Shown here in pieces: positions 1-19,217 of a stretch of 34,907 nucleotides of DNA. The stretch is from Bacteroidales bacterium (GTDB taxonomy: Bacteria > Bacteroidota > Bacteroidia > Bacteroidales > P3). The notes beneath the pieces are model-generated. The model searched no databases. It was not told the DNA's origin and worked only from the letters and a program-made list of their open reading frames with translations. A program made the position numbers and the translations under genes. Position 1 is the first letter of the stretch. Each line of letters opens with the position of its first letter. Where the stretch lies: the NCBI GenBank assembly GCA_017480145.1, contig JAFVBF010000003.1:1-34907 (forward strand). The letters are read 5' to 3'.

Positions 1-1
1 G

Positions 2-352
2 CCGCCTCGGACTATGGTTGAGCCCATTCACGATGAGACTCGAACCAGTTTTGCCGACAACACGCAAGGGGTTCCCTATGCCGTCTACAACATTGGAGGC
101 GGTCGGCCGGAGAACCTCTTGGACTTTGTGCAGACGCTGCAAGAGGAGTTGGTCAGGGCTGGAGTATTGCCCGAGGATTACGACTTCGAGGCGCACAAAG
201 AGCTTGCTCCGATGCAACCTGGCGACGTGCCCACCACCTTTGCCGACACCGAGGCACTGGACAGAGCCACTGGCTTCACTCCTCAGATACCCCTGCGCGA
301 AGGCTTGAGACGATTCGCCGAGTGGTATAAGGTGTTCTATGATGCAGATTAA
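2..352 (+). CDS. UDP-glucuronate 4-epimerase-like protein, C-terminal fragment
   Basis: This is the 3' end of a gene that begins before the window; the frame is open from base 2. The roughly 116 visible residues match the C-terminal part of extended SDR sugar-nucleotide epimerases of the CapI/UDP-glucuronate 4-epimerase type: YNIGGGRPENLLDFV, then MQPGDVPTTFADT, then GFTPQ and a final EGLRRFAEWYKVFY. In this family the enzyme interconverts UDP-glucuronate and UDP-galacturonate in the cytoplasm for capsule or EPS repeat units. The Rossmann NAD-binding half and catalytic residues lie outside the window, so the substrate cannot be confirmed. The gene is visibly G+C-richer than the pse genes that follow about 110 bases downstream. 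Confidence 0.85.
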   Translation, partial: PPRTMVEPIHDETRTSFADNTQGVPYAVYNIGGGRPENLLDFVQTLQEELVRAGVLPEDYDFEAHKELAPMQPGDVPTTFADTEALDRATGFTPQIPLREGLRRFAEWYKVFYDAD

Positions 353-461
353 TAAACACACACATCACTAAAATAAGAAGAGTATTCACCTTAATGCATG
401 AGCTCTTTTGTATTTATATGTTAAACAATAAATAGCAAATAATATATAAAAAAATATTGAT

Positions 462-1484
462 ATGCTTAATGGAAAAACAGTTCTAATTACTGGCGGTTCG
501 GGATCGTTCGGTAAGAAATTCGTGGAGGTAATTCTTAGAGATTACCCTAATGTAAAAAAAATCATCATCTACTCTCGAGGCGAGCTGAAGCAGTTCAATA
601 TGAAACAGCGCTGGCCAGAATGCAAGTACCCTCAACTTCGCTATTTTATTGGTGATGTACGTGATAGGGATCGGATGGTGCGGGCTTGCGAAGGAGTTGA
701 CGTCATTATTCATGCGGCAGCCATTAAGCAGGTCGACACAGCCGAGTACAACCCAGACGAATGCATCAAGACAAATGTTAATGGTGCCCAAAATGTCATA
801 GCTGCAGCTCTTTCTTGTGGAGTAAAAGATGTGGTTGCGCTGTCCACAGATAAGGCGTGTGCACCAATCAACCTATATGGTGCAACCAAACTGACCAGCG
901 ATAAGTTGTTCACGGCAGCAAACAACATTAAAGGAGCTAAAGATGTGCGGTTTTCTGTAGTCCGATATGGCAATGTGATGGGGAGCAGAGGAAGTGTTAT
1001 TCCATTCTTTATCAATAAGCGTGATAGTGGCGCTACGGAAATTCCAATCACGGATATGCGCATGACACGTTTTAATATCTCTTTAGAGGAAGGCGTGGCG
1101 TTGGTTATGTATGCACTTGGACATCATTTAGGGGGAGAAATATTTATCCCCAAAATTCCTTCGTATCACATCAAGGATGTTGCCACGGCCATAGCTCCAA
1201 ACCTGCCGCAGGTCGAAGTTGGAATCCGCCCAGGAGAAAAACTACACGAGGAGATGATAACTATTACCGATGCTCTTGATACAATCGATCTTGGGAAATA
1301 CTATGCTATTCTTCCTTCGGTGTCGTTCTGTTGGGGGAGGGAAGACTATATTAAGCACCACAATGCAAAGCCTGTTCCCTTTGGTTTTCATTATAGTTCT
1401 GATAGTAATGAACAGTGGGAGACAGTCGAATCAATGCGAGAAAACATTAGGAAGTATGTGTATCCTAACTTTGAAGTAAAATGA
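462..1484 (+). CDS. pseB: UDP-N-acetylglucosamine 4,6-dehydratase (inverting), PseB
   Basis: A 340-residue extended SDR enzyme, the usual length of PseB. The NAD(P)-binding GGSGSFG lies at residues 11-17, the STDKA segment gives D130 and K131, and Y139 with K143 form the YxxxK pair. PseB removes water from UDP-GlcNAc and inverts C-5 to give the 4-keto-6-deoxy-L-altro (arabino) sugar, the first step to pseudaminic acid. The D-K pair replacing the common T-D-E of retaining dehydratases supports PseB over a plain 4,6-dehydratase. Its stop overlaps the start of pseC (ATGA), so the two are translationally coupled. It is the first gene of the A+T-richer block. Confidence 0.93.
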   Translation: MLNGKTVLITGGSGSFGKKFVEVILRDYPNVKKIIIYSRGELKQFNMKQRWPECKYPQLRYFIGDVRDRDRMVRACEGVDVIIHAAAIKQVDTAEYNPDECIKTNVNGAQNVIAAALSCGVKDVVALSTDKACAPINLYGATKLTSDKLFTAANNIKGAKDVRFSVVRYGNVMGSRGSVIPFFINKRDSGATEIPITDMRMTRFNISLEEGVALVMYALGHHLGGEIFIPKIPSYHIKDVATAIAPNLPQVEVGIRPGEKLHEEMITITDALDTIDLGKYYAILPSVSFCWGREDYIKHHNAKPVPFGFHYSSDSNEQWETVESMRENIRKYVYPNFEVK

Positions 1485-2647
1485 TAGAGAAACCAATTCC
1501 ATACGGTCACCAGAACATTAACGATGAAGATGTGCAGGCTGTTGTAGCTGCTTTGAAGTCTGACTACATGACGCAAGGTCCGCTAATTAGACAGTTTGAG
1601 ATAGACTTTGCCAAGTACCTTGGGGTGGAGTATGCTTGTATGGTGAGTAATGGTACAGCAGCCCTGCACCTTTGTGCCATGGCATTGGATATTAAGCCCG
1701 GTGACAAGATTATCACAACACCTATTACTTTTGTTGCTTCTGCTAATGGCTTCCGTTATCAGGGAGCAGAAGTGGTATTCTGTGACATCGATTCCAAGAC
1801 CTTCTTGATGGATTTGGATAAACTTGAGCAGATACTCAAAGCGTCTCCGAAGGGAACTTACAAGGCCGTTGTACCCGTTGACTTTGCCGGTTATCCCATT
1901 GACGAGGAAAAACTTCGTAGATTGGCTGATGAATATGGCTTTGCCATTGTAGTTGATGCCTGCCATGCACCTGGAGGTAGCTTTGTGGATAGCAAAGGTG
2001 AGAAGCAGATGATTGGAAACTGCAAGTACGCAGACTTTACAGTATTTTCATTCCATCCTGTGAAGCATATTGCAACGGGTGAAGGTGGGGCTATTACCAC
2101 CAATCGCAAAGACCTTTATGACAAGGTTGTGCTCTTCCGTACTCATGGTATAACCAAAGACCCTGCCTTATTGGATACAAGCGATGGTGGCTGGTATTAT
2201 GAAATGCAAGAGTTGGGTTACAACTATCGCATTACCGAGATGCAGGCAGCCCTTGGCATCAGCCAATTGAAGCGTTTGAACTGGAGCATCCAGCGTAGAA
2301 ATGAGATTGCCAAGAAGTATGATGAGGCATTCAAAGGAATGGTTGTGAAGACTCCTTTCCGTCAGGTGGGGGTTACTCATGCTTTCCATCTATATGTTAT
2401 TCAGGTACCCACCGACAAGCGCAAGGGGTTGTACGACTACTTGCGAGCCAACAATGTCAATTCTCAAGTGCTGTATATTCCAGTCCATACTATGCCATAT
2501 TATCGGCAGTTTGGTTGGAAGAAGGGGGATCTGCCTGTGGCTGAAGACTACTATAGCAAATGTTTATCTCTACCCATGTTTCCGACGCTTACCGAGGAAG
2601 AACAGGATTGGATTATTGCAAAGGTTAAAGAGTTTTTTAATTTGTGA
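1481..2647 (+). CDS. pseC: UDP-4-keto-6-deoxy-L-AltNAc aminotransferase, PseC
   Basis: A 388-residue PLP-dependent DegT/DnrJ/EryC1 aminotransferase. VSNGTAALHL (about 55-64) is the cofactor phosphate region, D159 in VVDACH contacts the pyridine ring, and K195 in FSFHPVKHIATGEGG is the Schiff-base lysine. PseC converts the PseB product into UDP-4-amino-4,6-dideoxy-L-AltNAc, whose new amine becomes the C-7 nitrogen of pseudaminic acid. The FSFHPVKHIATGEGG signature and direct coupling to pseB separate it from other sugar aminotransferases. The next gene starts five bases after the stop. Confidence 0.93.
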   Translation: MIEKPIPYGHQNINDEDVQAVVAALKSDYMTQGPLIRQFEIDFAKYLGVEYACMVSNGTAALHLCAMALDIKPGDKIITTPITFVASANGFRYQGAEVVFCDIDSKTFLMDLDKLEQILKASPKGTYKAVVPVDFAGYPIDEEKLRRLADEYGFAIVVDACHAPGGSFVDSKGEKQMIGNCKYADFTVFSFHPVKHIATGEGGAITTNRKDLYDKVVLFRTHGITKDPALLDTSDGGWYYEMQELGYNYRITEMQAALGISQLKRLNWSIQRRNEIAKKYDEAFKGMVVKTPFRQVGVTHAFHLYVIQVPTDKRKGLYDYLRANNVNSQVLYIPVHTMPYYRQFGWKKGDLPVAEDYYSKCLSLPMFPTLTEEEQDWIIAKVKEFFNL

Positions 2648-2651
2648 CACA

Positions 2652-3185
2652 ATGGAAGTACCTGTATTAGACGGAGAGCAAATTTATCTTCGTCGCCTTA
2701 CCGAAGACGATGCGAGCGAAGCGTATGTTAGTTGGATGAACAATCCCGAGATCAACCAATATTTAGAGAGTCGTTTCTATACGCACACCATTGAGAGTAC
2801 AAAGGCATTCATCCGTTCGGTTTCTAATGATAGTAATTACCTGTTTGGTATATTCTTAAAAGACTGTGGTAAGCACATTGGAAACGTCAAAGTGGGGGGG
2901 ATAAATCATTATCATCGATATGCTGATATTGGCTTTCTGATAGGTGAAAAAGAATATTGGGGTAAGGGAATAGCAACTGAGGCTATTAAACTGGCAACTA
3001 GTTTCGCATTTGTCACATTAAGACTCCATAAGCTTTGGGGAGGCCTTTATTCACCCAATATAGGCAGTCTTCGTGCATTCCAGAAAAATGGCTACGAACA
3101 AGAAGGGGTAAAGAAGAGTCAGTATCTATTGAATGGTATTTATTATGATGATATAATGTTTGGAAAGGTCAATCCTAATGAGTAA
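2652..3185 (+). CDS. GNAT N-acetyltransferase (RimJ/RimL-like, possibly PseH-like)
   Basis: A 177-residue GNAT protein; the ATG at 2652 just after pseC is preferred to an in-frame start inside pseC. It begins with an IYLRRLTEDDASEAYVSWMNNPEIN segment typical of RimJ/RimL-type enzymes, and YWGKGIATEA (about 100) is the acetyl-CoA pyrophosphate loop. The C-terminal half has NIGSLRAFQKNGY, the usual GNAT motif B region. Its place between pseC and pseF suits acetylation of the 4-amino sugar nucleotide (PseH role), but a second GNAT at 7490 looks more like PseH, so this one may act on another position. A run of seven G (2894-2900) lies in the coding sequence and is in frame here. Confidence 0.82.
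   Translation: MEVPVLDGEQIYLRRLTEDDASEAYVSWMNNPEINQYLESRFYTHTIESTKAFIRSVSNDSNYLFGIFLKDCGKHIGNVKVGGINHYHRYADIGFLIGEKEYWGKGIATEAIKLATSFAFVTLRLHKLWGGLYSPNIGSLRAFQKNGYEQEGVKKSQYLLNGIYYDDIMFGKVNPNE
2894..2900 (+). repeat. Poly-G tract of 7 in the first GNAT gene
   Basis: Seven consecutive G encode part of KVGGIN in the GNAT gene at 2652-3185. In this copy the frame is intact. Any gain or loss not divisible by three would truncate the enzyme before its acetyl-CoA loop. Confidence 0.9.
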
Positions 3186-3903
3186 ACTATGTATAATCCC
3201 CGCTCGTGGCGGTAGCAAGCGCATCCCTCGCAAGAATATCAAGCTATTTATGGGTAAACCCATTATGGCGTATTCCATAGAGGCTGCTTTGAAAAGCGGA
3301 CTCTTTGATGAGGTGATGGTTTCTACCGACGATGAGGAGTTTGCTGAGGTTGCACGTCAGTATGGTGCAAGCGTACCGTTTTTACGTAGCGAGGCTACTG
3401 CCAACGACTATGCCACTACAGCAGACGTTCTAAACGAGGTGTTGGAGCGCTACAGAGAAATTGGAAAGGAATTTGATTCTTTCTGTTGTCTCTACTCCAC
3501 AGCACCTTTTGTTACCTCTGACCGATTAAAGAAGGCTAATGAGAAAATATCAGCAGACGTGGATGCTTGCTTTACGATGGTTCAGTATAGCTATCCCGCA
3601 CAGCGAGGCTTGCAGGTGAATGACAAAGGATATGTTGAAATGACAAATCCTGAATACCTTGGAATCCGTTCGCAAGATTTGAAATCTATTTATCACGATG
3701 CCGGTCAATTCTATTTCATCAAGACCAAAACATTCGAGACTGAGAAGACCTTGTGGGCCAAACGAACAGCTCCATTGATTCTTTCCGAACTTGAAATGCA
3801 AGACATTGATACAGAGACCGATTGGAAAATTGCAGAAATGAAGTATAAATTGTTAATTAACCCCGGGGGGGGGGAGAAGTTATGTAATACCTCTCCACGT
3901 TAG
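3178..3903 (+). CDS. pseF: Pseudaminic acid cytidylyltransferase, PseF
   Basis: A 241-residue NeuA/PseF-family CMP-nonulosonate synthetase. IIPARGGSKRIPRKN (about 5-19) is the CTP-binding signature, followed by MVSTDDEEFAE and LRSEATANDYATT. It would activate the final nonulosonate to its CMP form in the cytoplasm. The start at 3178 overlaps the upstream GNAT by eight bases. The family normally ends soon after the MKYKLL stretch; here ten G (3865-3874) follow at residue about 229 and set the last dozen residues. One G more or fewer would change the tail and stop codon but leave the catalytic body intact. Confidence 0.9.
   Translation: MSKLCIIPARGGSKRIPRKNIKLFMGKPIMAYSIEAALKSGLFDEVMVSTDDEEFAEVARQYGASVPFLRSEATANDYATTADVLNEVLERYREIGKEFDSFCCLYSTAPFVTSDRLKKANEKISADVDACFTMVQYSYPAQRGLQVNDKGYVEMTNPEYLGIRSQDLKSIYHDAGQFYFIKTKTFETEKTLWAKRTAPLILSELEMQDIDTETDWKIAEMKYKLLINPGGGEKLCNTSPR
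3865..3874 (+). repeat. Poly-G tract of 10 at the 3' end of pseF
   Basis: Ten consecutive G directly follow four C near the 3' end of pseF. It is the longest homopolymer noticed in the window. In the present length the frame ends at 3903; with 11 G a stop would come after only a few codons, and with 9 G the frame would run about 30 bases further. Confidence 0.9.
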
Positions 3904-3955: not shown

Positions 3956-4819
3956 ATGGCAAATACTGGCAAACTAGTACTTGGCACAGTACAATTCGGC
4001 ATCAATTATGGCATCAACAACACTTCTGGTCAAGTGCCTCTCAATGAAGTGTGCAAAATCTTAGAAATAGCTTCTGAGACAGGCGTCAAGACCCTTGATA
4101 CATCTTCTGCATATGGAGAGAGTGAGCGAGTCTTAGGTGAAGCCCTGAAACGCAGTAATAAACCTTTTAACATTGTTTCTAAATATCCTAAGTCCGATAT
4201 TGGGGTAAGGGAGACCTTCCAGAAGTCTCTGTCCCTCTTGGGAAGAGATGGCCTTTATGGCTATCTGGTGCATCATTTCGAGTTCTATCGGGAGCATCCT
4301 GAACTGTTCGATGAGATGACTGCACTGAAACAGGAGGGCAAGATACAGAAAGTTGGATTCTCTCTGTACAACACAGAACAGTTGCAGTATTTGCTTGACC
4401 GCAAGGTGAAGTTTGATATTCTCCAGTTCCCCTACAATATCTTCGATAAGCAGTTTGAAAGCTATATGTCCCAGCTGGTCGAGCTGGGCATTGAGATACA
4501 TACACGTTCAGCATTCTTACATGGATTGTTCTTTAGGGACACCAAGACCCTGCCTGAGAATCTGAAACCCTTAAAGAAATATCTTGATTACCTGCATATC
4601 TACTGCCAAAAACGAGGTCTCTCTGTAGAACAGTTGGCTTTGGGCTATGTGCTCTCCAATCCCTACGTGAAAGGTGCCTTGATAGGCGTAGACAACCACG
4701 AACAATTGGAAGCCAACCTGAAGGTGGCATCCGTAGAACTGACCAAAGAAGATATTGAGTACATTCATAATATAAATATTATTGAAGACTGGTTGTTAAA
4801 CCCTGTAAATTGGAATTAA
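3956..4819 (+). CDS. Aldo/keto reductase family protein of the nonulosonate cluster
   Basis: A 287-residue aldo/keto reductase with a TIM-barrel pattern. The expected tetrad can be read as D48 and Y53 in LDTSSAYG, K76 in IVSKYP, and H106 or H107 in YLVHH, so it should be an active NAD(P)H-dependent oxidoreductase. An AGGAGG ribosome site stands about ten bases before the ATG. No aldo/keto reductase is needed in the standard PseB-C-H-G-I-F route. Its position between pseF and an SpsF-like gene suggests it alters the carbonyl or hydroxyl pattern of a nonulosonate or a precursor. The substrate cannot be told from sequence. Confidence 0.85.
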   Translation: MANTGKLVLGTVQFGINYGINNTSGQVPLNEVCKILEIASETGVKTLDTSSAYGESERVLGEALKRSNKPFNIVSKYPKSDIGVRETFQKSLSLLGRDGLYGYLVHHFEFYREHPELFDEMTALKQEGKIQKVGFSLYNTEQLQYLLDRKVKFDILQFPYNIFDKQFESYMSQLVELGIEIHTRSAFLHGLFFRDTKTLPENLKPLKKYLDYLHIYCQKRGLSVEQLALGYVLSNPYVKGALIGVDNHEQLEANLKVASVELTKEDIEYIHNINIIEDWLLNPVNWN

Positions 4820-4823
4820 GGAT

Positions 4824-5603
4824 ATGGCAAAGATTTTAGCTATTACACAGGCTCGCTATGGCTCCACACGCCTACCGGCAAAGATACTGAAAAAAGTAGG
4901 AGACAAGACGTTGCTTGAAATTCACCTTAGTCGCATACTTCAAACTTACAGCATTGATAAGTTGAAGATAGCAACCACTGGAGAGGAAGGTTCTAAGTAT
5001 ATTGTTGAAGTGGCTAACAAAGTAGGAATAGAGTATCATAAAGGTTCTATAGAGGATGTGCTTACCCGTTTCTATGAAACAGCCGCACCAGAAAAACCTG
5101 ACTATATACTTCGCTTCACTTCCGATTGTCCGCTAATTGATCCTTCTGTCATTGATGACGTCGTAAACTTTGCAGTAACCCACCCAGAGTACGATTATGT
5201 TCATACCGACCCCAAGCAATTTCCTGATGGTCTCGACACGGAGATTATGAAATTCTCTGTTTTGGAAAAAACCTTCAAGGATGCCAAACTTAAGAGCGAG
5301 AGGGAGCATGTCACTTCACATATTTGGGAGAATGGTACAGCCAATGGGGGAACATTATTTAATACCTTCAATTTTCCAAATCGAGAGGGCGAGTACAATG
5401 CGAACGACTATCGCTTGACCATTGATGAGCCTGAAGACTTTGAGGTATTGAAAGTGTTGATTGAAAACCTCGGAGAAAACAAATATTGGAAAGATTACAT
5501 TGACTACTTGATTAAGCATAAAGACCTGTATGCCATCAATAGCAAGTTTGGTTACAATGAGGGATATGCTAAATCGCTTAGAAACGATAGTAAAATCAAA
5601 TAA
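4824..5603 (+). CDS. SpsF-like cytidylyltransferase family protein
   Basis: A 259-residue nucleotidyltransferase of the SpsF/CMP-KDO synthetase-like family. AITQARYGSTRLPAKIL at residues 6-22 is the nucleotide-binding signature, and LRFTSDCPLIDP (about 95-106) carries the metal-binding aspartates. SpsF of Bacillus subtilis spore polysaccharide is the name-giving member. Together with PseF this gives two likely CMP-sugar synthetases in one cluster, which suggests either two activated sugars or an activity other than nonulosonate activation. The start lies four bases after the aldo/keto reductase stop, and the aminotransferase follows 12 bases downstream. Confidence 0.83.
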   Translation: MAKILAITQARYGSTRLPAKILKKVGDKTLLEIHLSRILQTYSIDKLKIATTGEEGSKYIVEVANKVGIEYHKGSIEDVLTRFYETAAPEKPDYILRFTSDCPLIDPSVIDDVVNFAVTHPEYDYVHTDPKQFPDGLDTEIMKFSVLEKTFKDAKLKSEREHVTSHIWENGTANGGTLFNTFNFPNREGEYNANDYRLTIDEPEDFEVLKVLIENLGENKYWKDYIDYLIKHKDLYAINSKFGYNEGYAKSLRNDSKIK

Positions 5604-5615
5604 ACATTAGAAGCA

Positions 5616-6923
5616 ATGGGGAAAGGACAAGAGTTATATAAGAAAGCAAAAACAATGATTCCCGGAGGGACATCCCTCCTTTCAAAAAGGCCAGAACAAC
5701 TGTTACCTGAAAATTGGCCATCCTACTTTAGTAAGTCTAAAGGGTGTCATGTTTGGGACTTAGACGGTCACGAGTATATAGACTGTGGCTTGATGGGTGT
5801 GGGTACCAACACTCTTGGTTATGCCCGTGAAGAAGTTGATGAGGCTGTTATGAGAGTAGTTCGCGACGGAAATCTGACTACACTCAACTGCCCAGAAGAA
5901 GTCTATCTTGCAGAACGTTTGATTAAGATGAATCCTTGGGCAGGTGGTGTACGTTATACTCGAGGTGGAGGTGAAGCCAATTCTATGTGTGTTCGCATAG
6001 CGCGTGCCTATACAGGAAAAGACAAAGTGGCTATTTGTGGTTATCATGGTTGGCACGATTGGTATGTTTCTGTAAATCTTGGAGAGAATGATGCCCTTGC
6101 TGGTCACCTGTTGCCGGGCATACCTACAGCGGGTGTACCTAAAGGACTTAGGGGCACATCTATTCCATTCCATTATAACGACTTTGAGGAGATTGAAAAG
6201 ATTATTCGCAATACCCCTGATCTCGCTGCCGTTAAGATGGAAGTATGTCGCAACTTTGGCCCAGCAGAGGGCTATCTAAAGCACATCCGCAACCTCTGCA
6301 ATGAGTATGGTGTTGTCCTTATTTTTGATGAATGCACTTCTGGCTTCCGTGAGACCTTTGGCGGCCTGCACCAAAAGTATGGTATTTATCCTGACATGAC
6401 CATCTACAGTAAGACGATGGGTAATGGCTATGTGATTGCTGCAGTACTTGGTAAAAAAGAGATTATGGATGCTGCACAGGGAAGTTGGATTAGTTCAACC
6501 TTTTGGACAGACCGTATTGGTCCGACTGCCGCACTGGCCGCTCTTGATGTAATGGAAAAGACTAAGTCATGGGAATATATTACAGAGAAGGGCAAACAGA
6601 ATAAAATCCGCTGGCAGGCTTTGGCTGATAAATATAGCCTAAAGATTAACCAATGGGGTATACCTGCTTTGGCAGGATTTACTTTTGATCATCCAGACGC
6701 ACTGGCTTATAAGACCTATATCACTCAGGAGATGCTCAAGAAAGGGTATTTGGCAGGAAACCTGATGTACACCAGTCTTGCTCATACAGACGAGGTCTTA
6801 AACGGCTACTTCGAAGCACTTGATCCCATCTTCGCTGACATACGCGACTTCGAGGATGGCAAGGATGTGATGAAAGCTCTTGACGGCCCTGTATGTCAAG
6901 CTGGTTTTAAACGACTCAATTAA
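5616..6923 (+). CDS. Class III aminotransferase (glutamate-1-semialdehyde aminomutase-like)
   Basis: A 435-residue PLP enzyme of the class III fold. RGGGEANSMCVRIARAY (about 116-132) is the phosphate-binding region, CGYHGWHDWY follows, D238 in IFDECTSGFR contacts the pyridine nitrogen, and K266 in SKTMGNGY is the PLP lysine. It resembles glutamate-1-semialdehyde aminomutase but sits in a sugar cluster, far from heme genes, so a role in aminating a keto sugar is more likely. Paired with the adjacent aldo/keto reductase and SpsF-like genes it forms an extra three-gene set beyond the usual pse pathway. Its true substrate is unknown. Confidence 0.85.
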   Translation: MGKGQELYKKAKTMIPGGTSLLSKRPEQLLPENWPSYFSKSKGCHVWDLDGHEYIDCGLMGVGTNTLGYAREEVDEAVMRVVRDGNLTTLNCPEEVYLAERLIKMNPWAGGVRYTRGGGEANSMCVRIARAYTGKDKVAICGYHGWHDWYVSVNLGENDALAGHLLPGIPTAGVPKGLRGTSIPFHYNDFEEIEKIIRNTPDLAAVKMEVCRNFGPAEGYLKHIRNLCNEYGVVLIFDECTSGFRETFGGLHQKYGIYPDMTIYSKTMGNGYVIAAVLGKKEIMDAAQGSWISSTFWTDRIGPTAALAALDVMEKTKSWEYITEKGKQNKIRWQALADKYSLKINQWGIPALAGFTFDHPDALAYKTYITQEMLKKGYLAGNLMYTSLAHTDEVLNGYFEALDPIFADIRDFEDGKDVMKALDGPVCQAGFKRLN

Positions 6924-6932
6924 ATATTATTT

Positions 6933-7502
6933 ATGGCCCACTACAGGTGTCTTAAACAGCAGGAGTACACTCTTGGTGACCATTCCATTGTTCCACTCCG
7001 CTACGAGGATCGGTTTCTCATTATGAAGTGGAGAAATGAACAGATCTACCACTTGCGTCAAATTCATCCATTGACTGAGGGTGATCAACAGCGATATTTT
7101 GATAATGTTGTAGCCAAACTGTTCGATAACCCTAAACCAGAACAGATACTCTTCTCCTATTTGGAGAAGAGTATCTGCATTGGGTATGGTGGATTAGTGC
7201 ACATCAACTGGATAGACCGTAACGGAGAGATATCCTTCATTATGGATACAAAACTGGAGACAGAACACTTTCAAGAGCACTGGAGCAACTGGCTGACTAT
7301 GTTAAAGGATGTAGCCTTTACAAACTTGGGGTTGCATAAGATATATACTTACGCATTTGACTTGCGACCTCATCTATACAAAGTATTGGAAGCAAATGGT
7401 TTTATGCGCGAGGCTACATTGAAAGAACATTGTCTGTTCCAAGGAGAATACAAAGATGTTGTGTTGCATGGATTAATAAACCAAAAAGTATGCCCAAAGT
7501 AA
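6933..7502 (+). CDS. GNAT-like acyltransferase with degenerate acetyl-CoA loop
   Basis: A 189-residue protein whose plan follows GNAT enzymes: VPLRYEDRFLIMKWRNEQIYHLRQ near the N terminus, a central ISFIMD strand, and YKVLEANGFMREATLKEH near the C terminus. The usual Q/RxxGxG/A pyrophosphate loop is not visible after ISFIMD; the segment there reads LETEHFQEHWSNWLTML. It may therefore bind its cofactor in an unusual way, use another donor, or have no catalytic activity. It begins nine bases after the aminotransferase and overlaps the next gene by 13 bases. A perfect 15-base inverted repeat lies inside it at 7143-7177. Confidence 0.72.
   Translation: MAHYRCLKQQEYTLGDHSIVPLRYEDRFLIMKWRNEQIYHLRQIHPLTEGDQQRYFDNVVAKLFDNPKPEQILFSYLEKSICIGYGGLVHINWIDRNGEISFIMDTKLETEHFQEHWSNWLTMLKDVAFTNLGLHKIYTYAFDLRPHLYKVLEANGFMREATLKEHCLFQGEYKDVVLHGLINQKVCPK
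7143..7177. repeat. Perfect 15-base inverted repeat inside a GNAT gene
   Basis: CAGATACTCTTCTCC at 7143-7157 is followed by a five-base loop and its exact reverse complement at 7163-7177. As RNA this would be a strong hairpin in the middle of the coding region. There is no T-run after it, so it is not a standard terminator. Confidence 0.85.
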
Positions 7503-8034
7503 CATTTCGTCCCATCGATACAAAGGATTTGGAAATCTTACGCCAATGGCGTAATTCTCCAGAAATTGCTCGCAATATGTTCTCTTCAGAAATGATAACC
7601 GAAGAGCAACAACGCAAGTGGTACGAGAGTGTGTGTCGCGGAGATCGCGGTTATTGTTGGTTTGTTGAGAGCGACGAACAAGCGGTGGGATTTGCCTCAC
7701 TGGCATCTGCAGAACGTTCCAAGGATACGTATGAGTTTGGTTTATATGTTGGAAATCAAATATTAAGTAGGGGGGGTACGGATCGGCTATTCTATTCAAT
7801 ATCTTATGGGAAGCATTCGAAAAGTTACATGCTCATAAGGTAATTTGTCAAGTTCTTGCTTTTAATGCAGCAGCCATCCACCTTTATGAAAAGTTTGGAA
7901 TGCAGCAGCAAGGCTATTTTAAGGACTATTTAAAACGAGATAAAGAAAGAATAGATTGCATATCTTACGCCATATTTGAACAGGAGTGGCAGAAACTGCG
8001 AGATGACTTGTACAAGAGGTCCAGAAGTCATTGA
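7490..8034 (+). pseudogene. pseH: PseH-like N-acetyltransferase, frameshifted at a poly-G tract
   Basis: The first part reads MPKVTFRPID, ILRQWRNSPEIARNMFSSE and TYEFGLYVGNQILSRG, then the frame breaks at seven G (7770-7776). Reading on in the +1 frame from 7777 gives YGSAILFNILWEAFEKL, then AFNAAAIHLYEKFGM and a stop at 8032-8034. Joined, the protein is about 180 residues and closely follows known PseH (WRN..I start, EFGLY strand, acetyl-CoA loop, IHLYEKFG). Five G restore RGYGSA, a good RxxGxA loop; eight G also restore the frame with one extra glycine. It would N-acetylate UDP-4-amino-6-deoxy-AltNAc. The break lies exactly in a homopolymer, so phase variation or a sequencing error are both possible. 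Confidence 0.85.
7770..7776 (+). repeat. Poly-G tract of 7 at the pseH-like frameshift
   Basis: Seven consecutive G mark the exact place where the PseH-like reading frame is lost. Upstream the protein is read in the frame of the ATG at 7490, downstream in the frame ending at 8034. A change of minus two or plus one G would restore the full protein. Confidence 0.9.
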
Positions 8035-8078: not shown

Positions 8079-8951
8079 ATGAATTATTGCATTTGTGCGT
8101 CAGGTTCACTTGGACTTACCGTCCTGCAACGCCTGGCAGCATCCCCCATTACGATTAAGTGTGTACTGACTGACCGCCACAGCGATAGTATTGTTGAATA
8201 CTGTGAGCGGATACTGTTGCCTGTGTTTGTAGGAAATCCCAGAAAACGGAAAGCAGTGGAATGGATGGAAGAAAGAAAAATTCAGTTCGAAAACTTGCTA
8301 TCTATCAATTATCTCTTTATCCTTGAATCGGATGTATTAAACAAATCAACTGAATATGCCGTGAACTTTCACGGTTCGTTACTTCCCAAATATAGAGGCA
8401 GAACACCTCACGTTTGGGCTATCATCAATGGAGAAAGAGAGACTGGTGTAACAGCACACCTAATGAACGTCAACTGCGATGATGGAGATATCGTACGGCA
8501 GGTGATAGTTCCAATTGAAGAGGACGATACCGGGGCTTCGATATTAGAGAAATATAAACAGCTATATCCAGATCTTGTTTTACAAGTGGTTAAGGATATA
8601 GAAAGTAAGAAGATTGTTTGTAGAAAACAGGATATAAGCAAAGCCAGCTATTTCGGTAAACGCACCCCTGAAGATGGTAAAATTTGTTGGGAATGGCAGA
8701 AAGAACGCATACGTAATTGGGTAAGAGCTCAAGCAAAACCTTATCCTGGTGCCTTTACATTTTTGAATAACGACAAAATTATTATCAATAAGATAGAATA
8801 TAGTGACTTAGGATTTGATGACACAATGAGTAATGGACTTATTGTGGCAGTGAAAGATGGTAAGCCGTACGTTAAGACACCCAATGGCGTAGTGAAAATG
8901 ATAGAATTTGAAACAGGTGCTATTATCAAAGAAGGAGATTTATTATCATAA
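8079..8951 (+). CDS. Sugar N-formyltransferase (methionyl-tRNA formyltransferase fold)
   Basis: A 290-residue formyltransferase. The catalytic triad of the family is visible as N96 and H98 in VNFHGSLLPKYRGRTP and D134 in the NCDDGD segment, so it should transfer formyl from N10-formyltetrahydrofolate to an amine. It is shorter than, and in a different context from, the tRNA enzyme Fmt. A C-terminal domain follows from about residue 200. In pathways to 7-N-formyl pseudaminic acid a formyltransferase called PseJ takes the place of PseH, and here the gene stands 44 bases after a broken pseH-like gene. I infer that it formylates the 4-amino group made by PseC; formylation of an amine made by the class III aminotransferase is the other option. 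Confidence 0.85.
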   Translation: MNYCICASGSLGLTVLQRLAASPITIKCVLTDRHSDSIVEYCERILLPVFVGNPRKRKAVEWMEERKIQFENLLSINYLFILESDVLNKSTEYAVNFHGSLLPKYRGRTPHVWAIINGERETGVTAHLMNVNCDDGDIVRQVIVPIEEDDTGASILEKYKQLYPDLVLQVVKDIESKKIVCRKQDISKASYFGKRTPEDGKICWEWQKERIRNWVRAQAKPYPGAFTFLNNDKIIINKIEYSDLGFDDTMSNGLIVAVKDGKPYVKTPNGVVKMIEFETGAIIKEGDLLS

Positions 8952-8959
8952 ATAGGAAT

Positions 8960-9967
8960 ATGAGCAAAACGTTTATAGTAGCTGAACTTTCAGCCAATCA
9001 TGGTCATAAGATTGAAGTAGCATTGGCATCAATTCGCGCTGCAAAAGAGGCAGGAGCGGATGCCATCAAGATACAGACTTATACAGCAGATACACTTACG
9101 ATAAACTGTAATAAACCTGATTTCCGCCTTGGCAAAGGATTATGGGAGGGGGAAACCTACTATACTCTGTACCAAAAAGCCTACACTCCATGGGAATGGC
9201 ATCAGGCCATTTACGATGAGGCCAGAAGACAGGGGCTTGTATGCTTCTCCACTCCGTTTGACAAAACAGCGGTAGATTTCCTCGAAGAACTGGGAAACCC
9301 AATCATTAAGATTGCCAGTTTTGAGATAACAGACGTTGGATTTCTGGAGCATGCTGCCAAGAAAGGCAAACCTATGGTGATTTCCACGGGTATTGCTACC
9401 CCCGATGATATTGAGTTAGCGATAAGGACTTGTAAGAATGCTGGCAATAACGATATTACGCTCCTGAAATGCACCTCCTCTTATCCGGCTCCCATCGAAA
9501 CTGCAAACCTGATGACGATGGTAGATATGAAACAACGTTACGGTGTAAAGGTAGGTTTGTCCGACCATACTATGGGACACGACGTGGCTGTAGCCGCTGT
9601 TGCATTAGGTGCAACTATGGTCGAAAAACATTTCATCGTGGATCGCTCTATCGGTGGACCCGATGCGGCTTTTTCAATGGAGAAAGATGAGTTTGACGCT
9701 ATGGTGAAGTCCATCCGAAATGTGGAGAAAGCTTTGGGTGAGGTGTTTTATCCTACCGACCCATCCCAAATTAAAGGACGTGAGTTAAGTCGCTCCCTGT
9801 ATGTTATTAAGGATGTTAAAGCGGGCGATATTGTTTCTGAAGAAAATATTCGCAGTATTCGCCCTGGATTGGGGCTTCACCCAAGGTATCTATCAGAAGT
9901 GATCGGGAAACAGTTTGTAAAAGATTGTACGATGGGAGATAGGTTTTCATTGGATATTATCAAATAA
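8960..9967 (+). CDS. pseI: Pseudaminic acid synthase, PseI
   Basis: A 335-residue NeuB-family synthase. The N-terminal TIM barrel starts FIVAELSANHGHKIEVAL and has GADAIKIQTYTADTLT (about 33-48), LLKCTSSYPAP and VGLSDHTMGHDVAVAA, and VEKHFIVDRSIGGPDAAFS. The last 60 residues form a SAF/antifreeze-like domain (SRSLYVIKDVKAGDIVSEENIRSIRPGLGLHP). PseI condenses a 6-deoxy-AltdiNAc type hexose with phosphoenolpyruvate. The SANHGH and TYTADTLT forms favour PseI over sialic or legionaminic synthases. It needs the free sugar produced by PseG, yet no pseG is in the window. It starts eight bases after the formyltransferase. Confidence 0.93.
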   Translation: MSKTFIVAELSANHGHKIEVALASIRAAKEAGADAIKIQTYTADTLTINCNKPDFRLGKGLWEGETYYTLYQKAYTPWEWHQAIYDEARRQGLVCFSTPFDKTAVDFLEELGNPIIKIASFEITDVGFLEHAAKKGKPMVISTGIATPDDIELAIRTCKNAGNNDITLLKCTSSYPAPIETANLMTMVDMKQRYGVKVGLSDHTMGHDVAVAAVALGATMVEKHFIVDRSIGGPDAAFSMEKDEFDAMVKSIRNVEKALGEVFYPTDPSQIKGRELSRSLYVIKDVKAGDIVSEENIRSIRPGLGLHPRYLSEVIGKQFVKDCTMGDRFSLDIIK

Positions 9968-11252: not shown

Positions 11253-11276
11253 TACAACTGAACTTTGGGGGCAGTA

Positions 11277-12557
11277 ATGAAGCTGAACATCGAATCATAC
11301 TTGTCTTCACTGAAGAAGATTGCGAAACGTAACAGGGTAATATTAGAGAACTTCTCTTATATTACCCTAATGCAGATGCTCCTTATTGTTGCGCCACTTA
11401 TCACATATCCATACTTGACGCGTGTTTTAGGAACTAAACTTTATGGGACCGTGCTAACAGCTCAAGTGCTTGCAAGTTATGCGACTATCATTGTTCGCTT
11501 CGGATTCGATTCGGTCAGTGCACGACACATATCGATGCATATGGATAACAAGGAAAAGCTTTCAGAAGTCATGTCATCCATAATGACCATGAGGGGATTG
11601 CTATGGATCGCTTGTGCTGCAATATACATTGCGGTTGTACTTGCTGTTCCAGTATACCGTGAACATTTTCTTCTATTTCTTTTCTCCTATGGACTAACAA
11701 TCAATGTACTGCTATTTCCGCAATTCTATTTTCAGGGGATTGAACAGATGAAGTTCATCACCCTTATCAATGTAGGAATACAAGCCTTATTTGTAGTATT
11801 GACGTTTATTGTAATCAAAAGCCCCAACGATTATATCTATGTGCCATTGTTGCACGCTGTAGGATACCTAATTGGTGGCGTAGCTGCACTTTTCATTATT
11901 TTCCATAGCCACAGGATAAAGTTTCGTTTTCCTCAGAGGTCGCAGGCTCTCTATTATGTCAAAGATGCTGCACCATTGTTTGCCACCGATGCCGTGTGTA
12001 CCATTAAGGATAAGTTCAATTACTTACTAATAGGCGTATGCGTTTCAATGAGCGAAGTGGTACCATATGATGTAGGGGCAAAACTAACCTCGTTATCCAT
12101 TCTGCCGTTGACCATCATCAATACGGTAGTCTTTCCAAAGATGGCTCGAGACAAAAGCAATCGTCAATTCCGTATGGTGGGACTAGTAATAGTTACCTGT
12201 ATCGTTACCCTGGTGCTATTGATAAATATCTTTTTGAGACCCATTGTCCATTTTCTAATTGGTTGCGATGTGGATTTATTTCCGATACGTCTTTACTTAC
12301 TATCCCCCATATTCCTTGGTTTGTCGTCCTATACAGCATCCTCGTTGATTGTGGCGCGTGGACACAATCGATATATGTTATATAGCATCTTGATTACAAC
12401 TGGAGTATACCTTGTATTGCTGATTGCATTGTACCTAACCTACCAACTTACTTCCATAACTTCTTTCATAATACTTACGGTTGTATCTTATTTCGCAGAA
12501 TTGATATATCGACTCGCCATAGGACGAAAGATAATCTGTAAAGAAAACATCAGGTAA
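11277..12557 (+). CDS. wzx: Wzx-type polysaccharide flippase
   Basis: A 426-residue MOP-superfamily membrane protein with about a dozen hydrophobic segments. The N-terminal ENFSYITLMQMLLIVAPLITYPYLTRVLG followed by LYG is the common start of Wzx/RfbX flippases. It would move the undecaprenyl-linked repeat unit across the inner membrane. The ATG at 11277 is preferred to a TTG four codons earlier. It starts 24 bases after the GT4 gene and contains an inverted repeat near its 5' end. Confidence 0.9.
   Translation: MKLNIESYLSSLKKIAKRNRVILENFSYITLMQMLLIVAPLITYPYLTRVLGTKLYGTVLTAQVLASYATIIVRFGFDSVSARHISMHMDNKEKLSEVMSSIMTMRGLLWIACAAIYIAVVLAVPVYREHFLLFLFSYGLTINVLLFPQFYFQGIEQMKFITLINVGIQALFVVLTFIVIKSPNDYIYVPLLHAVGYLIGGVAALFIIFHSHRIKFRFPQRSQALYYVKDAAPLFATDAVCTIKDKFNYLLIGVCVSMSEVVPYDVGAKLTSLSILPLTIINTVVFPKMARDKSNRQFRMVGLVIVTCIVTLVLLINIFLRPIVHFLIGCDVDLFPIRLYLLSPIFLGLSSYTASSLIVARGHNRYMLYSILITTGVYLVLLIALYLTYQLTSITSFIILTVVSYFAELIYRLAIGRKIICKENIR
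11334..11368. repeat. Near-perfect 17-base inverted repeat at the 5' end of wzx
   Basis: AGGGTAATATTAGAGAA (11334-11350) and TTCTCTTATATTACCCT (11352-11368) are reverse complements except for one mismatch, with a single base between them. It lies about 57 bases after the wzx start codon. Confidence 0.82.
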
Positions 12558-12672
12558 CGATATAATCTATGATAATACAATATAGGTCATTAACTCATAT
12601 TGGTTTCGTTCTATAGCATAATCAATTATCGATCTATATTATATATATTGTTTCTGAACAAAATAGTATGAA

Positions 12673-14052
12673 ATGTACATAATGAGACGAAATAGTGGGC
12701 TGATTTTTATATCAACTCTATTGGGGTTTATTTTTCTTCTATTTTACTTAATTGGAGATACATCATACCTAATGGTAAATATAGAGAGAGGAATTCTATT
12801 ATTGTCAGTATTAATTTTTTTTGTTTCATTACAATACGACAATAAGAAAGTTAGTTTGATTTATCTTTTTCTTTTTTCAACGACACTCTTTCTTTTAGGC
12901 AGAGTTATACTGTCCGTTTTTGATGACAAAGAACTATACGATTCGAATAAATATGTGTTTTATACAATGCATATGGAAACTGTCAGTAAAGTGCTATGTT
13001 TAATTGGAACTTCTCTTTCTTTTTCGGTTGTGGGATTTTGTACATACTCCGAAAAAAATAGGCATAATAGGACATATCAAAGAAAGGTATTTTTCCCTGG
13101 GATGGAGCAATACTGGAAGGTAATCATGTATATTACTATCCCATTATGTATCTATAAACAATATGTTGATTTATCAATGATAAGAATTGATGAATATCTT
13201 TCGATATATACACAGGACACAAAATCTCCTTTAATCGCCAAAGCTGGGTGGTGGCTTTTTTCTACATTATTTCCCGTGGGTTTGCTATTCATAAATTGTA
13301 AACGTGATTTTTTTAGAATGGTAGGTATTTATGCAGTTGCTAATTTTTTTAATTTAATAACAGGGAGTAGGTCTTCATTACTGGTTCCTATTCTATTTTT
13401 TACGTGGTATTATTATACATTCATAACAAATAAAGATATCCATTTGCTATATATCATTATTGGAATTGTACTCATAGCATATATTGCAGAATGGTTGCTC
13501 ACCTTACGAGAAGGTGTGTTCCAGAAAAATGGTGTAATAAAAATGCTATTGGAAACACAAGGCGTTCAGTATGTTTTTTTGGGAAATTATCTTGACATGA
13601 AAGATCAATTTGTGGTTAAAAGCCATTGGTATATATTATTCCCACTATACGCTCTAATACCCAGACTGACAAATCCTGTCTTTCGAACAGGACATTCCTC
13701 GGAAATGATAGAACAAACATTATCACTTGACCATCAATTGATGTATGCTTGCAATCCACAAGCATATCTTTCTGGAGCTGGGTATGGTAGTTGTTATATT
13801 GCCGAATTACATGCATTGGGTGGCATTCTGGCTGTTTTAATAGGCTCATTTTTGTTAGGGAGATTCATGGCTTGGTTTGAAAAAAAATGTGCAGATTTTC
13901 AGTCTCCATATATTATTGTATTATCTTTTTTCATTGTTTCACATATTTTTAGAATAGCTAGAGATCCTTTGTTTATTGAACCAATATCACTCCTATTTCC
14001 TTGCTTATTTTTATTACTTTTTCAGAAAAGAATCAATCCAAACAATGAATAG
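12673..14052 (+). CDS. wzy: Wzy-type O-antigen/capsule polymerase
   Basis: A 459-residue, very hydrophobic protein with ten or more membrane segments and little conserved sequence, as is usual for Wzy. NLITGSRSSLLVPILFF resembles the oligosaccharide repeat unit polymerase family, where a GSR or similar motif is common. It would join flipped repeat units in the periplasm. An internal ATG three codons in is an alternative start. The gene is the most A+T-rich of the locus. It follows wzx after 115 bases of A+T-rich DNA and overlaps the next gene by eight bases. Confidence 0.82.
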   Translation: MYIMRRNSGLIFISTLLGFIFLLFYLIGDTSYLMVNIERGILLLSVLIFFVSLQYDNKKVSLIYLFLFSTTLFLLGRVILSVFDDKELYDSNKYVFYTMHMETVSKVLCLIGTSLSFSVVGFCTYSEKNRHNRTYQRKVFFPGMEQYWKVIMYITIPLCIYKQYVDLSMIRIDEYLSIYTQDTKSPLIAKAGWWLFSTLFPVGLLFINCKRDFFRMVGIYAVANFFNLITGSRSSLLVPILFFTWYYYTFITNKDIHLLYIIIGIVLIAYIAEWLLTLREGVFQKNGVIKMLLETQGVQYVFLGNYLDMKDQFVVKSHWYILFPLYALIPRLTNPVFRTGHSSEMIEQTLSLDHQLMYACNPQAYLSGAGYGSCYIAELHALGGILAVLIGSFLLGRFMAWFEKKCADFQSPYIIVLSFFIVSHIFRIARDPLFIEPISLLFPCLFLLLFQKRINPNNE

Positions 14053-16264: not shown

Positions 16265-17260
16265 ATGAACACCGACGACATCACGATGAATGAGTTGTCG
16301 AACGACGGCTCGGCGATATACATTTACAAGAGCAGCAAGATTGGCACTTGGACGGCCTACGGACGCAGTGGTTTTGCTTTAAGGGTGATGGCTTTGAAGG
16401 TTGGCATCGCACACCTCGTTTCGTTTGCTGATAGGCTGAAGCTGCCAGCGGTGACGGTGGACGAGGCAACATACTATAACTTTACCAAGGTCGTCCAAGC
16501 CACCAATGATGAGAATCAAAGTTTTCATTACATCAATCCTCTCGTTTTTGACGAACAGGCCTACGGTGACTGGGTATGTGAACTCACACCGCGAATCAGT
16601 GTACAGACTACGGCTACCATTGACGACATGGTGCCCGACATGCGGTTCATCCGCGACAACATGACCGTCTTCGAGCATGAAATAAAACGTCTCATTGACC
16701 TGTTTGTCTCTGCCGTCGTGATGCTCATCTTCTCACCACTCTTCATCGTCATATTCCTTGCCGTAAAATTAGAGGACGGAGGTCCAGCGATATATCGACA
16801 AGAGAGAATAGGCCGCTTTGGCCGCCCATTCTACATATTGAAATTCCGCTCCATGCGGACAGATGCTGAGAAGTTTGGTCCTGCATTGAGCCATCAAGGG
16901 GGTGACAACGATCCGAGACTGACAAAAGTAGGCAAGTTTATACGCTCGCATCACCTTGATGAATTGCCTCAATTGTGGAATGTCTTTAGGGGTGACATGG
17001 CCTTTGTGGGTCATAGACCCGAGCGGAAGTACTTCATCGACCAGATAAAACAAGTCGATCCGCGCTACGACTACCTGTATCAGATAAGACCTGGTGTGAC
17101 CAGCTATGCCACCCTCTACAACGGCTATACCGACACAATAGAGAAGATGGTCAAACGCCTTGAATACGACCTCTACTACCTTGAGCACAGGAGTCTATGG
17201 TTCGATATCAAAATCCTATGGCGTACCTTTACCAGCATCATCTTTGGAAAAAAGATATAA
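16265..17260 (+). CDS. Undecaprenyl-phosphate sugar-1-phosphate transferase (monotopic phosphoglycosyl transferase)
   Basis: A 331-residue protein. The C-terminal 190 residues form the bacterial sugar transferase domain: a hydrophobic re-entrant helix at about 143-167, EDGGPAIYRQERIGRFGRPF, KFRSMRTDAE with D200 and E202 as the likely catalytic pair, then LDELPQLWNVFRGDMAFVGHRPE and the RPGVTSYATLY stretch. It places the first sugar phosphate of the repeat unit on undecaprenyl phosphate at the inner membrane. The first 135 residues form an extra cytoplasmic domain of unknown function, without the four-helix membrane part of WbaP or WcaJ. It is preceded by 238 bases in which I see no gene. Confidence 0.92.
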   Translation: MNTDDITMNELSNDGSAIYIYKSSKIGTWTAYGRSGFALRVMALKVGIAHLVSFADRLKLPAVTVDEATYYNFTKVVQATNDENQSFHYINPLVFDEQAYGDWVCELTPRISVQTTATIDDMVPDMRFIRDNMTVFEHEIKRLIDLFVSAVVMLIFSPLFIVIFLAVKLEDGGPAIYRQERIGRFGRPFYILKFRSMRTDAEKFGPALSHQGGDNDPRLTKVGKFIRSHHLDELPQLWNVFRGDMAFVGHRPERKYFIDQIKQVDPRYDYLYQIRPGVTSYATLYNGYTDTIEKMVKRLEYDLYYLEHRSLWFDIKILWRTFTSIIFGKKI

Positions 17261-17344
17261 AACGTAGCCGCAAGTCCACATCAACTTCAGGATTGTATCC
17301 GTAACGATACGGAGCAAGTACAACTTAATTACCATCATCAAAAT

Positions 17345-17557
17345 ATGGAAGAGACAAACTATAAACAGCAAGACATCGAGGCTATAACATCCTATCTTCT
17401 CGGAAAGAAGAATGTTTCTGTTAGCGACATCATGGCACATAGTGGAGCGAACCGCCTACGGGTGTACAGCATCCTCTTCGAACTGGAGCAGGAAGGAAAA
17501 CTTATCGTGACCGAGAGAGAAACACTCGGTGCCGTCAAAACGGTAAGCTTGCTGTGA
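17345..17557 (+). CDS. Small winged-helix-like protein
   Basis: A 70-residue protein with the pattern of a small winged helix-turn-helix: a first helix (QQDIEAITSYLLGK), a VSVSDIMAHSGANRLRVYSILFELEQEGK segment that fits helix-turn-recognition helix, and a short wing (LIVTERETLGAVKTVSLL). I do not recognise a named family. Its position between the last polysaccharide gene and a recombinase-like gene suggests local control of the locus or help in recombination, but this is inference. Confidence 0.6.
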   Translation: MEETNYKQQDIEAITSYLLGKKNVSVSDIMAHSGANRLRVYSILFELEQEGKLIVTERETLGAVKTVSLL

Positions 17558-17673
17558 GACAATCGCAACATTTCCTTTTTTTATTACCGACCAATTTTTC
17601 GCATAATGCGAAGCCACCGATACTGAATTCTATTCATAGAAAGTAGAATCAGTGACGTATAAAACAACGGAAG

Positions 17674-18801
17674 ATGGGAAAGATACTTACATGTAAGACA
17701 ATTGAGGACTATGTGGCCATGCGGGACGATTGGAATTCCAAGTCGACACGGCAGGGCTATGAGGCTTTGGTTTGTCAATTGAGAGCCTTTGCAAACTTTG
17801 TGGGAGCACAACGTGGTGATGTTTTCTCTGAGTTGGGAAGAATCGGGGATGGCAATTATGTGTGGACGAAGGATGAAGGAAACGAGATTGGGGAAGATAA
17901 AACCAGAGGAATACGTCGCAGTCAGGAGGTGTCAACGAACGGAGCAGGAGGAGAACGTAACAAGGATGGAGCACAGAAAGGAGATGGTGTTGGTGTTCAA
18001 GGTCGAAATGGTAAACAAGGACAAAAGATCTCGGCAGAAAAAGCGCAGGAATTCTATCGGACGAGAGTCATAGATGCAGTCTTCTTTCAAGGCTTTGCTC
18101 AGTTCCTTTTGAGAAATGTTAAGCCGTCAACGGCGCGAGGCTATTTGGAGAAGTTGCGGGCACTCATTCGGCAGTTGATACGTCAAGGGGTCGTGGAAGA
18201 GATGCCTTTGCAGGATATATCAGATCTGTTCCCACAAAGTGAGGATGCAGAGAAGGTCTTTCTGACGCGAGAAGAGTTGCGGAGTTTGCGGCAGGCCAGT
18301 TGCCCGACAGAAAGCACAAAACAGGCTTTTCTTTTCTCATGTTACACGGGATTATTGAAAGGCGAGGTTAAAGAATTGCAGTGGGACAACATACGATATA
18401 GTGGAACAGGCCTTACGCTCAGCCGACCAGTGGAGAACAGCAGAGAGATGGTGAAAGTTCCGCTGATAGAGCCCGCACGAGAAATCATCAGCGCCTTGGA
18501 GCGCGATTATGCTTCTATTCCGCAGGCGCAGCGAGATGACCATGTATTTCATCTGTTGAGCAACACAACCATCAGTTCTCACTTGCGTTCATGGGCAAAG
18601 GAGGCTGGGATAAAGAAGAACATCAACTACATGACCAGTCGACACACGTTTGCTACCATAGCTTTGCGTGCCGGAGTGGATTTGTATGTGGTTGCAAAAT
18701 GGTGTGGGTACAGCAACGTGAGTTCGGCCGAGGTATATGCCGATTTGGTAGGACGCAACTTGCAAACAGACGGAGACGTCTTAGAAGCTGCTTTTGCATA
18801 G
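17674..18801 (+). CDS. Tyrosine recombinase family protein with altered catalytic residues
   Basis: A 375-residue protein with the plan of a phage-integrase family recombinase: an N-terminal SAM-like domain (split, 20-45 and 133-190) and a C-terminal catalytic domain. The first catalytic arginine (TGLR in relatives) is L228 in CYTGLLKGEVKELQW, the HxxR histidine is M320 in NYMTSRHTFAT, and the LGH position is Y346 in WCGYSN. R323, H324 and the nucleophile Y355 in AEVYADLV are kept. A Gly/Lys/Glu-rich, low-complexity stretch (about 66-120) interrupts the N-terminal domain. It may be inactive as a recombinase or work in an unusual way. A hairpin terminator follows. Confidence 0.85.
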   Translation: MGKILTCKTIEDYVAMRDDWNSKSTRQGYEALVCQLRAFANFVGAQRGDVFSELGRIGDGNYVWTKDEGNEIGEDKTRGIRRSQEVSTNGAGGERNKDGAQKGDGVGVQGRNGKQGQKISAEKAQEFYRTRVIDAVFFQGFAQFLLRNVKPSTARGYLEKLRALIRQLIRQGVVEEMPLQDISDLFPQSEDAEKVFLTREELRSLRQASCPTESTKQAFLFSCYTGLLKGEVKELQWDNIRYSGTGLTLSRPVENSREMVKVPLIEPAREIISALERDYASIPQAQRDDHVFHLLSNTTISSHLRSWAKEAGIKKNINYMTSRHTFATIALRAGVDLYVVAKWCGYSNVSSAEVYADLVGRNLQTDGDVLEAAFA

Positions 18802-18851
18802 GGGAGAGACAAAAATAAAGAAGACATAGTTTTATACATTTTGATGCAGGG

Positions 18852-18891
18852 AGGGGTGACTCGGAGAGAAAATCTCGTGTCGCCCTTTTTT
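18852..18891 (+). terminator. Rho-independent terminator after the recombinase gene
   Basis: An imperfect hairpin pairs AGGGGTGACTCGGAGA with TCTCGTGTCGCCCT and runs into six T. It lies about 50 bases after the recombinase stop codon. Confidence 0.62.
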
Positions 18892-19152: not shown

Positions 19153-19217
19153 TGCTTTTCTTTTGAGAAACATTTACAGACACAAGTCAACGTTTCTCAG
19201 AGTGGGAAGCTCTGGCC

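What the first reader, a model, noticed from the sequence alone, without database searches (positions are those of the whole stretch)
7490..8034. PseH-like acetyltransferase switched off at a poly-G tract
The reading frame with the best PseH likeness breaks exactly at seven G (7770-7776); sequence before and after is otherwise intact and well conserved. Two fewer G restore a good acetyl-CoA loop (RGYGSA). This is what a slipped-strand phase-variable gene in its OFF state looks like. Such poly-G switches are well known in Campylobacter and Helicobacter surface-glycan genes, while Bacteroidetes are mostly known for DNA inversion.
Basis: partly seen in the sequence, partly recalled or inferred. 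Interest (0 to 1): 0.75.

Follow-up and report, generated by a model that had tools for sequence, protein, structure and literature searches.

The report
Sugar acetyltransferase gene broken at G-run
In a bacterium's surface-sugar gene cluster, a gene resembling the acetyltransferase PseH is cut in two at a run of seven Gs; this is most likely a natural copying slip, but seven-G runs are not unusually common in this genome and a reversible on/off switch is not shown.

Summary
In detail: seven G lie at 7770-7776, and the PseH model (TIGR03585) matches at positions 2-91 before the tract and 91-155 after it, in another frame. Neighbours PseB, PseC, PseF and PseI are over cut-off. A slip at the tract is the best reading. 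Phase variation is not shown: the genome has 47 G7 tracts, 44 expected, the situation a review describes for the meningococcal siaD 7C tract. Tracts of 8 G or more do exceed expectation (46 against 10.7; 30.4 under the simplest model). Three more genes here are split at G tracts: an unassigned gene, a hexapeptide acyltransferase and, with weaker evidence, a PKD-like protein. Against a switch system: in-frame G7-G9 tracts also lie in likely housekeeping genes, and in a relative with more tracts 0 of 9 scored in-gene tracts were out of frame. No reads or second isolate were at hand. A B. fragilis paper already suggested slippage for a polysaccharide-locus acetyltransferase. New member of a known kind.

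The parts
7770..7776 (+). G7 tract at which the frame of the PseH-like gene breaks
7490..7843 (+). first half of the PseH-like GNAT gene plus out-of-frame tail to the stop; Acetyltransf_3, TIGR03585 positions 2-91
7774..8034 (+). second half of the PseH-like gene in another frame; TIGR03585 positions 91-155
462..1484 (+). PseB, UDP-GlcNAc 4,6-dehydratase (inverting), over cut-off
1481..2647 (+). PseC aminotransferase, over cut-off
2652..3185 (+). intact GNAT acetyltransferase containing an in-frame G7 tract (2894-2900); start chosen by hand inside a longer open frame
3160..3903 (+). PseF cytidylyltransferase, over cut-off; a G10 tract at 3865-3874 lies beyond the end of the model match
3956..4819 (+). 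aldo/keto reductase
4824..5603 (+). second cytidylyltransferase-family protein (CTP_transf_3)
5616..6923 (+). class III aminotransferase
6933..7502 (+). second intact GNAT; its end overlaps the start of the broken gene
8079..8951 (+). formyltransferase (Formyl_trans_N and _C); best solved matches are ArnA, weaker match to PseJ
8960..9967 (+). PseI pseudaminic acid synthase, over cut-off
11265..12557 (+). flippase-like polysaccharide biosynthesis protein (Polysacc_synt)
12673..14052 (+). oligosaccharide repeat unit polymerase-like protein (39.4 bits, cut-off 40)

Best explanation
The window holds a pseudaminic-acid-type surface glycan cluster of a probable Bacteroidota bacterium. A PseH-like GNAT gene in it carries a frameshift at a G7 tract, so the assembled sequence encodes only the first half of the enzyme plus an out-of-frame tail. 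The indel most likely arose in cells by replication slippage, and fairly recently, because the second half has no further stop. It works like the meningococcal siaD 7C case: a mutation-prone run that gives occasional loss, and perhaps regain, of a sugar modification, not a demonstrated evolved switch. Shown: tract, frame break, family likeness of both halves, cluster context, tract statistics. Inferred: slippage as the cause, recency, reversibility, effect on the glycan.
For: Break exactly at the tract with continuous profile coverage. Second half open for 85 codons after the tract, with the codon usage of a coding frame on both sides and 30-39% identity to five homologous loci. In-gene G/C>=7 tracts: 4 of 21 scored out of frame; I dropped one (L135) as a gene junction after reading it by eye, leaving 3 of 20. 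Random sites 24 of 1579 (p=0.004), G5 and G6 runs 3 of 134 (p=0.03); the control shifts were not inspected in the same way. One further split gene (L104) lies below the score threshold and is not in this count. A review passage says each meningococcal genome has about 40 7C/7G loci, many by chance, and sees no evidence of evolved mutability at siaD 7C (PMC11868660, passages); here 47 G7 tracts, 43.9 expected.
Against: Against A/T runs of 7 or more (1 of 33 out of frame) the difference is not significant (p=0.145). One draft genome only and no reads, so an assembly choice or a mixed population cannot be excluded. The excess of G8-G10 tracts hints at more than accident.
Confidence: 0.5

Rival explanations
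1. Evolved poly-G contingency locus: the tract is one of a set of slippage switches in surface genes of this lineage, now off in most cells.
For: Tracts of 8 G or more: 46 seen, 10.7 expected (order-4 Markov); G9: 20 seen, 1.7 expected. Other split genes: C30:4140 G9 (no Pfam match; homologues run through in one frame), C30:24934 G7 (hexapeptide acyltransferase), C9:28698 G8 (PKD-like below cut-off, open frames of 1271 and 1489 bases in different registers). Contig C30, judged a second glycan cluster, holds 5 tracts where 1.65 are expected (p=0.027, contig chosen afterwards).
Against: This tract is G7, the class not in excess. In-frame G7-G9 tracts also lie in an amino-acid kinase, a cytidylyltransferase-like protein, a semialdehyde dehydrogenase and an ABC-F-like protein. 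In relative G004, 0 of 9 scored in-gene tracts of 8 or more and 0 of 8 G7 were out of frame, and 53 of 67 of the longer ones were not in scored genes. Under order-0 and order-1 models the expectation for 8 or more is 30.4 and 28.9, so the excess is smaller (order 0: p=0.005).
Confidence: 0.22
2. Sequencing or assembly artefact: the true tract has another length and the gene is intact.
For: Draft assembly, 86 contigs, 81% complete, perhaps a metagenome bin; homopolymers are error-prone (general knowledge).
Against: A/T runs of 7 or more score in frame in 32 of 33. I noticed no other break among the main window genes, but did not test this systematically.
Confidence: 0.13
3. Stable pseudogene: function lost for good, with the other GNATs or the formyltransferase taking over.
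For: Two intact GNATs and a formyltransferase in the same cluster; no PseG match in the incomplete genome, so the pathway may be partly lost or different.
Against: No further stop in the second half; flanking genes open.
Confidence: 0.1
4. Recoding: ribosome or polymerase slippage at the G run yields some full-length enzyme from the sequence as it stands.
For: The run offers repeated GGG codons.
Against: The four split genes show two different frame relations (worked out by hand), so one recoding rule does not serve all; the homologues whose loop DNA was printed have no such run.
Confidence: 0.05

Closest known systems
Bacteroides fragilis 638R PSI/9 acetyltransferase frameshift (Patrick et al. 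2010, PMC3090145; passages read)
   Same: Bacteroides polysaccharide locus; acetyltransferase-related gene frameshifted in a mononucleotide run; the authors suggest slippage could vary the polysaccharide
   Different: there a run of 4 C, seen by comparing strains; here G7 in one draft assembly
Neisseria meningitidis siaD 7C tract (described in review PMC11868660; passages read)
   Same: seven-base G/C run in a capsule gene; many such runs in the genome are expected by chance
   Different: there capsule switching has been associated with tract changes; here no variation has been observed
Campylobacter and Helicobacter poly-G contingency genes (recalled; named in the finding)
   Same: G runs in surface glycan genes
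   Different: their switching has been measured (recalled); here nothing could be
PseH N-acetyltransferase (TIGR03585; solved 4xpk, 4ri1)
   Same: both halves match the model; pse cluster context
   Different: neither half reaches the cut-off and the halves were not joined
PseJ formyltransferase (6ci2, 6ci4)
   Same: the neighbour at 8079-8951 matches it over residues 72-169
   Different: ArnA is a closer match (110 bits against 40)

Membership tests
SSR-mediated phase-variable gene | reading frame interrupted at a simple repeat | tested here: met
SSR-mediated phase-variable gene | tract of a length that is more frequent in the genome than chance gives | tested here: not met
   G7: 47 seen, 43.9 expected with order 4, 93-97 with orders 0 and 1
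SSR-mediated phase-variable gene | reversible length variation within a population | not testable with these tools
   no reads or second isolate held
SSR-mediated phase-variable gene | tract kept at this site in homologues | tested here: inconclusive
   no run of 7 G in the distant homologues whose loop DNA was printed; no close homologue found in the sets searched
PseH | whole-protein score over the TIGR03585 cut-off | tested here: inconclusive
   60.3 and 47.3 bits for the halves, cut-off 93.1; halves not joined
PseH | sits in a pseudaminic acid cluster | tested here: met
   PseB, PseC, PseF, PseI over cut-off; PseG not found in the genome, 81% complete
PseH | acetylates the UDP-4-amino sugar | not testable with these tools
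   needs an enzyme assay

The most novel reading that the evidence does not exclude
This Bacteroidota lineage uses genome-wide poly-G slippage, not only DNA inversion, to vary its surface. In this cluster the GNAT's on/off state decides whether the nonulosonate carries an acetyl group (PseH-like enzyme) or a formyl group (neighbouring formyltransferase).
Probability: 0.1. Interest if true: 0.7.

Novelty: new member of a known kind. Interest (0 to 1): 0.38.

Why it matters
If the tract varies in a population, it would add slippage-based glycan variation to a group known for inversion switches, and it could be counted in existing sequencing reads. If it does not, it is a useful caution: a broken frame at a seven-base run can be an accident in a genome with 47 such runs.

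Tried and rejected
Close homologues of the broken gene: a DNA search of 61 genomes gave, besides the own genome, 3 short matches of 33-51 bases. The first-half protein matched 1 other of 149 family genomes at E<=1e-6 (G100, 30% identity), 4 distant loci in genome contigs, a scan that reaches close relatives only (three Chloroflexi, one labelled Desulfobacca), and 1 plasmid record (Paenibacillus, 26%). With TIGR03585, 1 of 190 family genomes was over the cut-off (G100). So tract conservation between close species could not be tested.

Relatives of other split genes: the C30:4140 gene had matches in 15 genomes besides its own of 189; in the 24 bases printed at the site none of the 15 had a run of 7 G. 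The hexapeptide piece matched in 121 of 189 genomes, own included; 29 loci besides the own were looked at and none had a run of 7 G in the 24 bases printed, but many of these are other hexapeptide proteins, so this is weak.

Replication in a second genome failed: G004 has 67 tracts of 8 G or more; 5 too near a stretch end, 53 not scored as in genes, 9 in frame, 0 out of frame; its G7 tracts 8 in frame, 0 out; random sites 84 of 2108 out of frame.

One programmed frameshift for all split genes: rejected, since they show two frame relations. DNA inversion: a tyrosine recombinase lies at 17674-18801, but inverted repeats found in 16900-19300 and 1-3000 were 25 nt or shorter and imperfect; not pursued. 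Organism name: not determined; Bacteroidota is inferred from a PorZ match and a CarbopepD_reg_2 plus Plug protein. A first classifier run saw only the window because the loci lay in other files; searches replaced it.

Literature, held library only: seven searches on slippage or phase variation listed 4, 2, 3, 1, 3, 0 and 4 papers; I opened passages of two (PMC11868660, PMC3090145) and saw the rest as listings only, among them PMC12003011, which holds the terms poly-G tract, phase variation and Bacteroides. None of these listings showed measured poly-G phase variation in Bacteroidota by title or abstract start. One search on PseJ gave 0 papers.

Full report
Observation. The window has seven G at 7770-7776. 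A gene starting at ATG 7490 reads into the tract and stops at 7843; the rest, 7774 to the stop ending at 8034, reads in another frame. The first piece matches the PseH model TIGR03585 at positions 2-91 (60.3 bits), the second at 91-155 (47.3 bits); the cut-off for a whole protein is 93.1. In the PDB the first piece matches one distinct sequence, PseH 4xpk (E=0.0003); the second matches 21, the PseH entry 4ri1 being the fourth (E=5e-5). Both pieces match the same five distant homologous loci.

Context. PseB, PseC, PseF and PseI are over their cut-offs. Between them lie an aldo/keto reductase, a second cytidylyltransferase-family protein, a class III aminotransferase, two intact GNATs and a formyltransferase, followed by a glycosyltransferase-like protein, a flippase-like protein and a polymerase-like protein. 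PseG was not found in the genome, which is 81% complete. The formyltransferase resembles ArnA (110 bits) and, more weakly, PseJ (40 bits). That it and the broken GNAT compete for one amino group is an inference.

Is the tract special? In this 1.91 Mb assembly there are 47 tracts of exactly 7 G and 46 of 8 or more. An order-4 Markov model trained on the fetched loci and window, tracts masked (368,305 bases), expects 43.9 and 10.7. The longer ones are 22 of G8, 20 of G9, 3 of G10 and 1 of G11, against 8.6, 1.7, 0.3 and 0.1 expected. The result depends on the model: orders 0 and 1 expect 97.0 and 93.2 of G7 and 30.4 and 28.9 of 8 or more; orders 2 and 3 expect 9.6 and 15.3 of 8 or more. Under all five, G9 is in excess (at most 5.5 expected) and G7 is not clearly so (39.6-97.0 expected). 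The finding's own tract belongs to the class without clear excess; the G10 at 3865-3874 to the surplus class. The density of tracts of 8 or more is third highest of 37 genomes of the genus searched; 24 genomes of other families had 0 to about 10 per Mb.

Other breaks at G tracts. The stretches fetched (57) and the window hold 70 of the 93 tracts: all 46 of 8 or more and 24 of the 47 G7, taken by contig order. Codon scores called 17 in one frame, 4 shifted and 49 not in scored genes. I dropped one shift (L135) as a gene junction after reading it by eye. The others: the window tract; C30:4140 G9, a gene without a Pfam match whose 15 homologous loci run through the site in one frame; C30:24934 G7 in a hexapeptide acyltransferase. 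A fourth, C9:28698 G8, has open frames of 1271 and 1489 bases meeting in different registers in a PKD-like protein (below the Pfam cut-off), but lay under the score threshold. Controls: A/T runs of 7 or more 1 of 33 shifted; A/T 6 3 of 89; G5 3 of 116; G6 0 of 18; random sites 24 of 1579; these were not inspected by eye. Fisher on 3 of 20: against random sites p=0.004, against G5 and G6 p=0.03, against A/T p=0.145. C30 is judged a second glycan cluster from glycosyltransferase and sugar-transfer ATP-grasp matches and by eye from its ORFs.

Against a genome-wide switch system. In-frame G8 or G9 tracts also lie in an amino-acid kinase, a cytidylyltransferase-like protein (NadD-like by recall) and a RapZ-C protein, and G7 tracts in an ABC-F-like protein (two) and a semialdehyde dehydrogenase. 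Most classified tracts are not in scored genes. In relative G004 none of 9 scored in-gene tracts of 8 or more was out of frame. Where site DNA was printed, homologues of the split genes had no run of 7 G.

Literature. A review of phase variation (PMC11868660, passages) treats the meningococcal siaD 7C tract as an accidental mutation-prone run, because many such runs in that genome are expected by chance; the same holds here. Patrick et al. 2010 (PMC3090145, passages) report in B. fragilis 638R a frameshift by an extra C in a run of 4 C in an acetyltransferase-related gene of a polysaccharide locus, and suggest slippage as a source of variation. So the idea in this group is not new. Measured poly-G switching there was not seen in the listings of seven searches of the held library.

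Verdict. A real lesion in the assembly, most likely a slippage product in a surface-sugar gene; phase variation is possible but unproven, and a tract of this length is ordinary for this genome. The surplus of G8-G10 tracts is the more interesting lead.

Noticed in passing
window 3865-3874: G10 tract near the end of pseF, beyond the PseF model match, before the aldo/keto reductase gene; belongs to the over-represented length class.
   Followed up: partly
L157, L158 (contig C30 of the same genome): A likely second polysaccharide cluster with five tracts of 7-9 G, two of them splitting genes.
   Followed up: partly
L104 tract (C9:28698): G8 tract where two long open frames of a PKD-like protein meet in different registers.
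   Followed up: partly
L117, L130, L132 and G004 loci L205-L257: 53 of 67 tracts of 8 or more G in G004 are not in scored genes; in the own genome three runs (in L117, L130, L132) have GA before and CTTC after. Cause unknown.
   Followed up: no
the four split genes (window 7770, L120, L151, L104): The G run is followed by TAC or TAT in all four; noticed afterwards, may be chance.
   Followed up: no
window 17674-18801: Tyrosine recombinase (Phage_integrase) beside the glycan cluster; only short imperfect inverted repeats found nearby.
   Followed up: partly
window 12001-14000: GC falls to 33% over the polymerase-like gene, against 41-54% in the other 2-kb windows.
   Followed up: no
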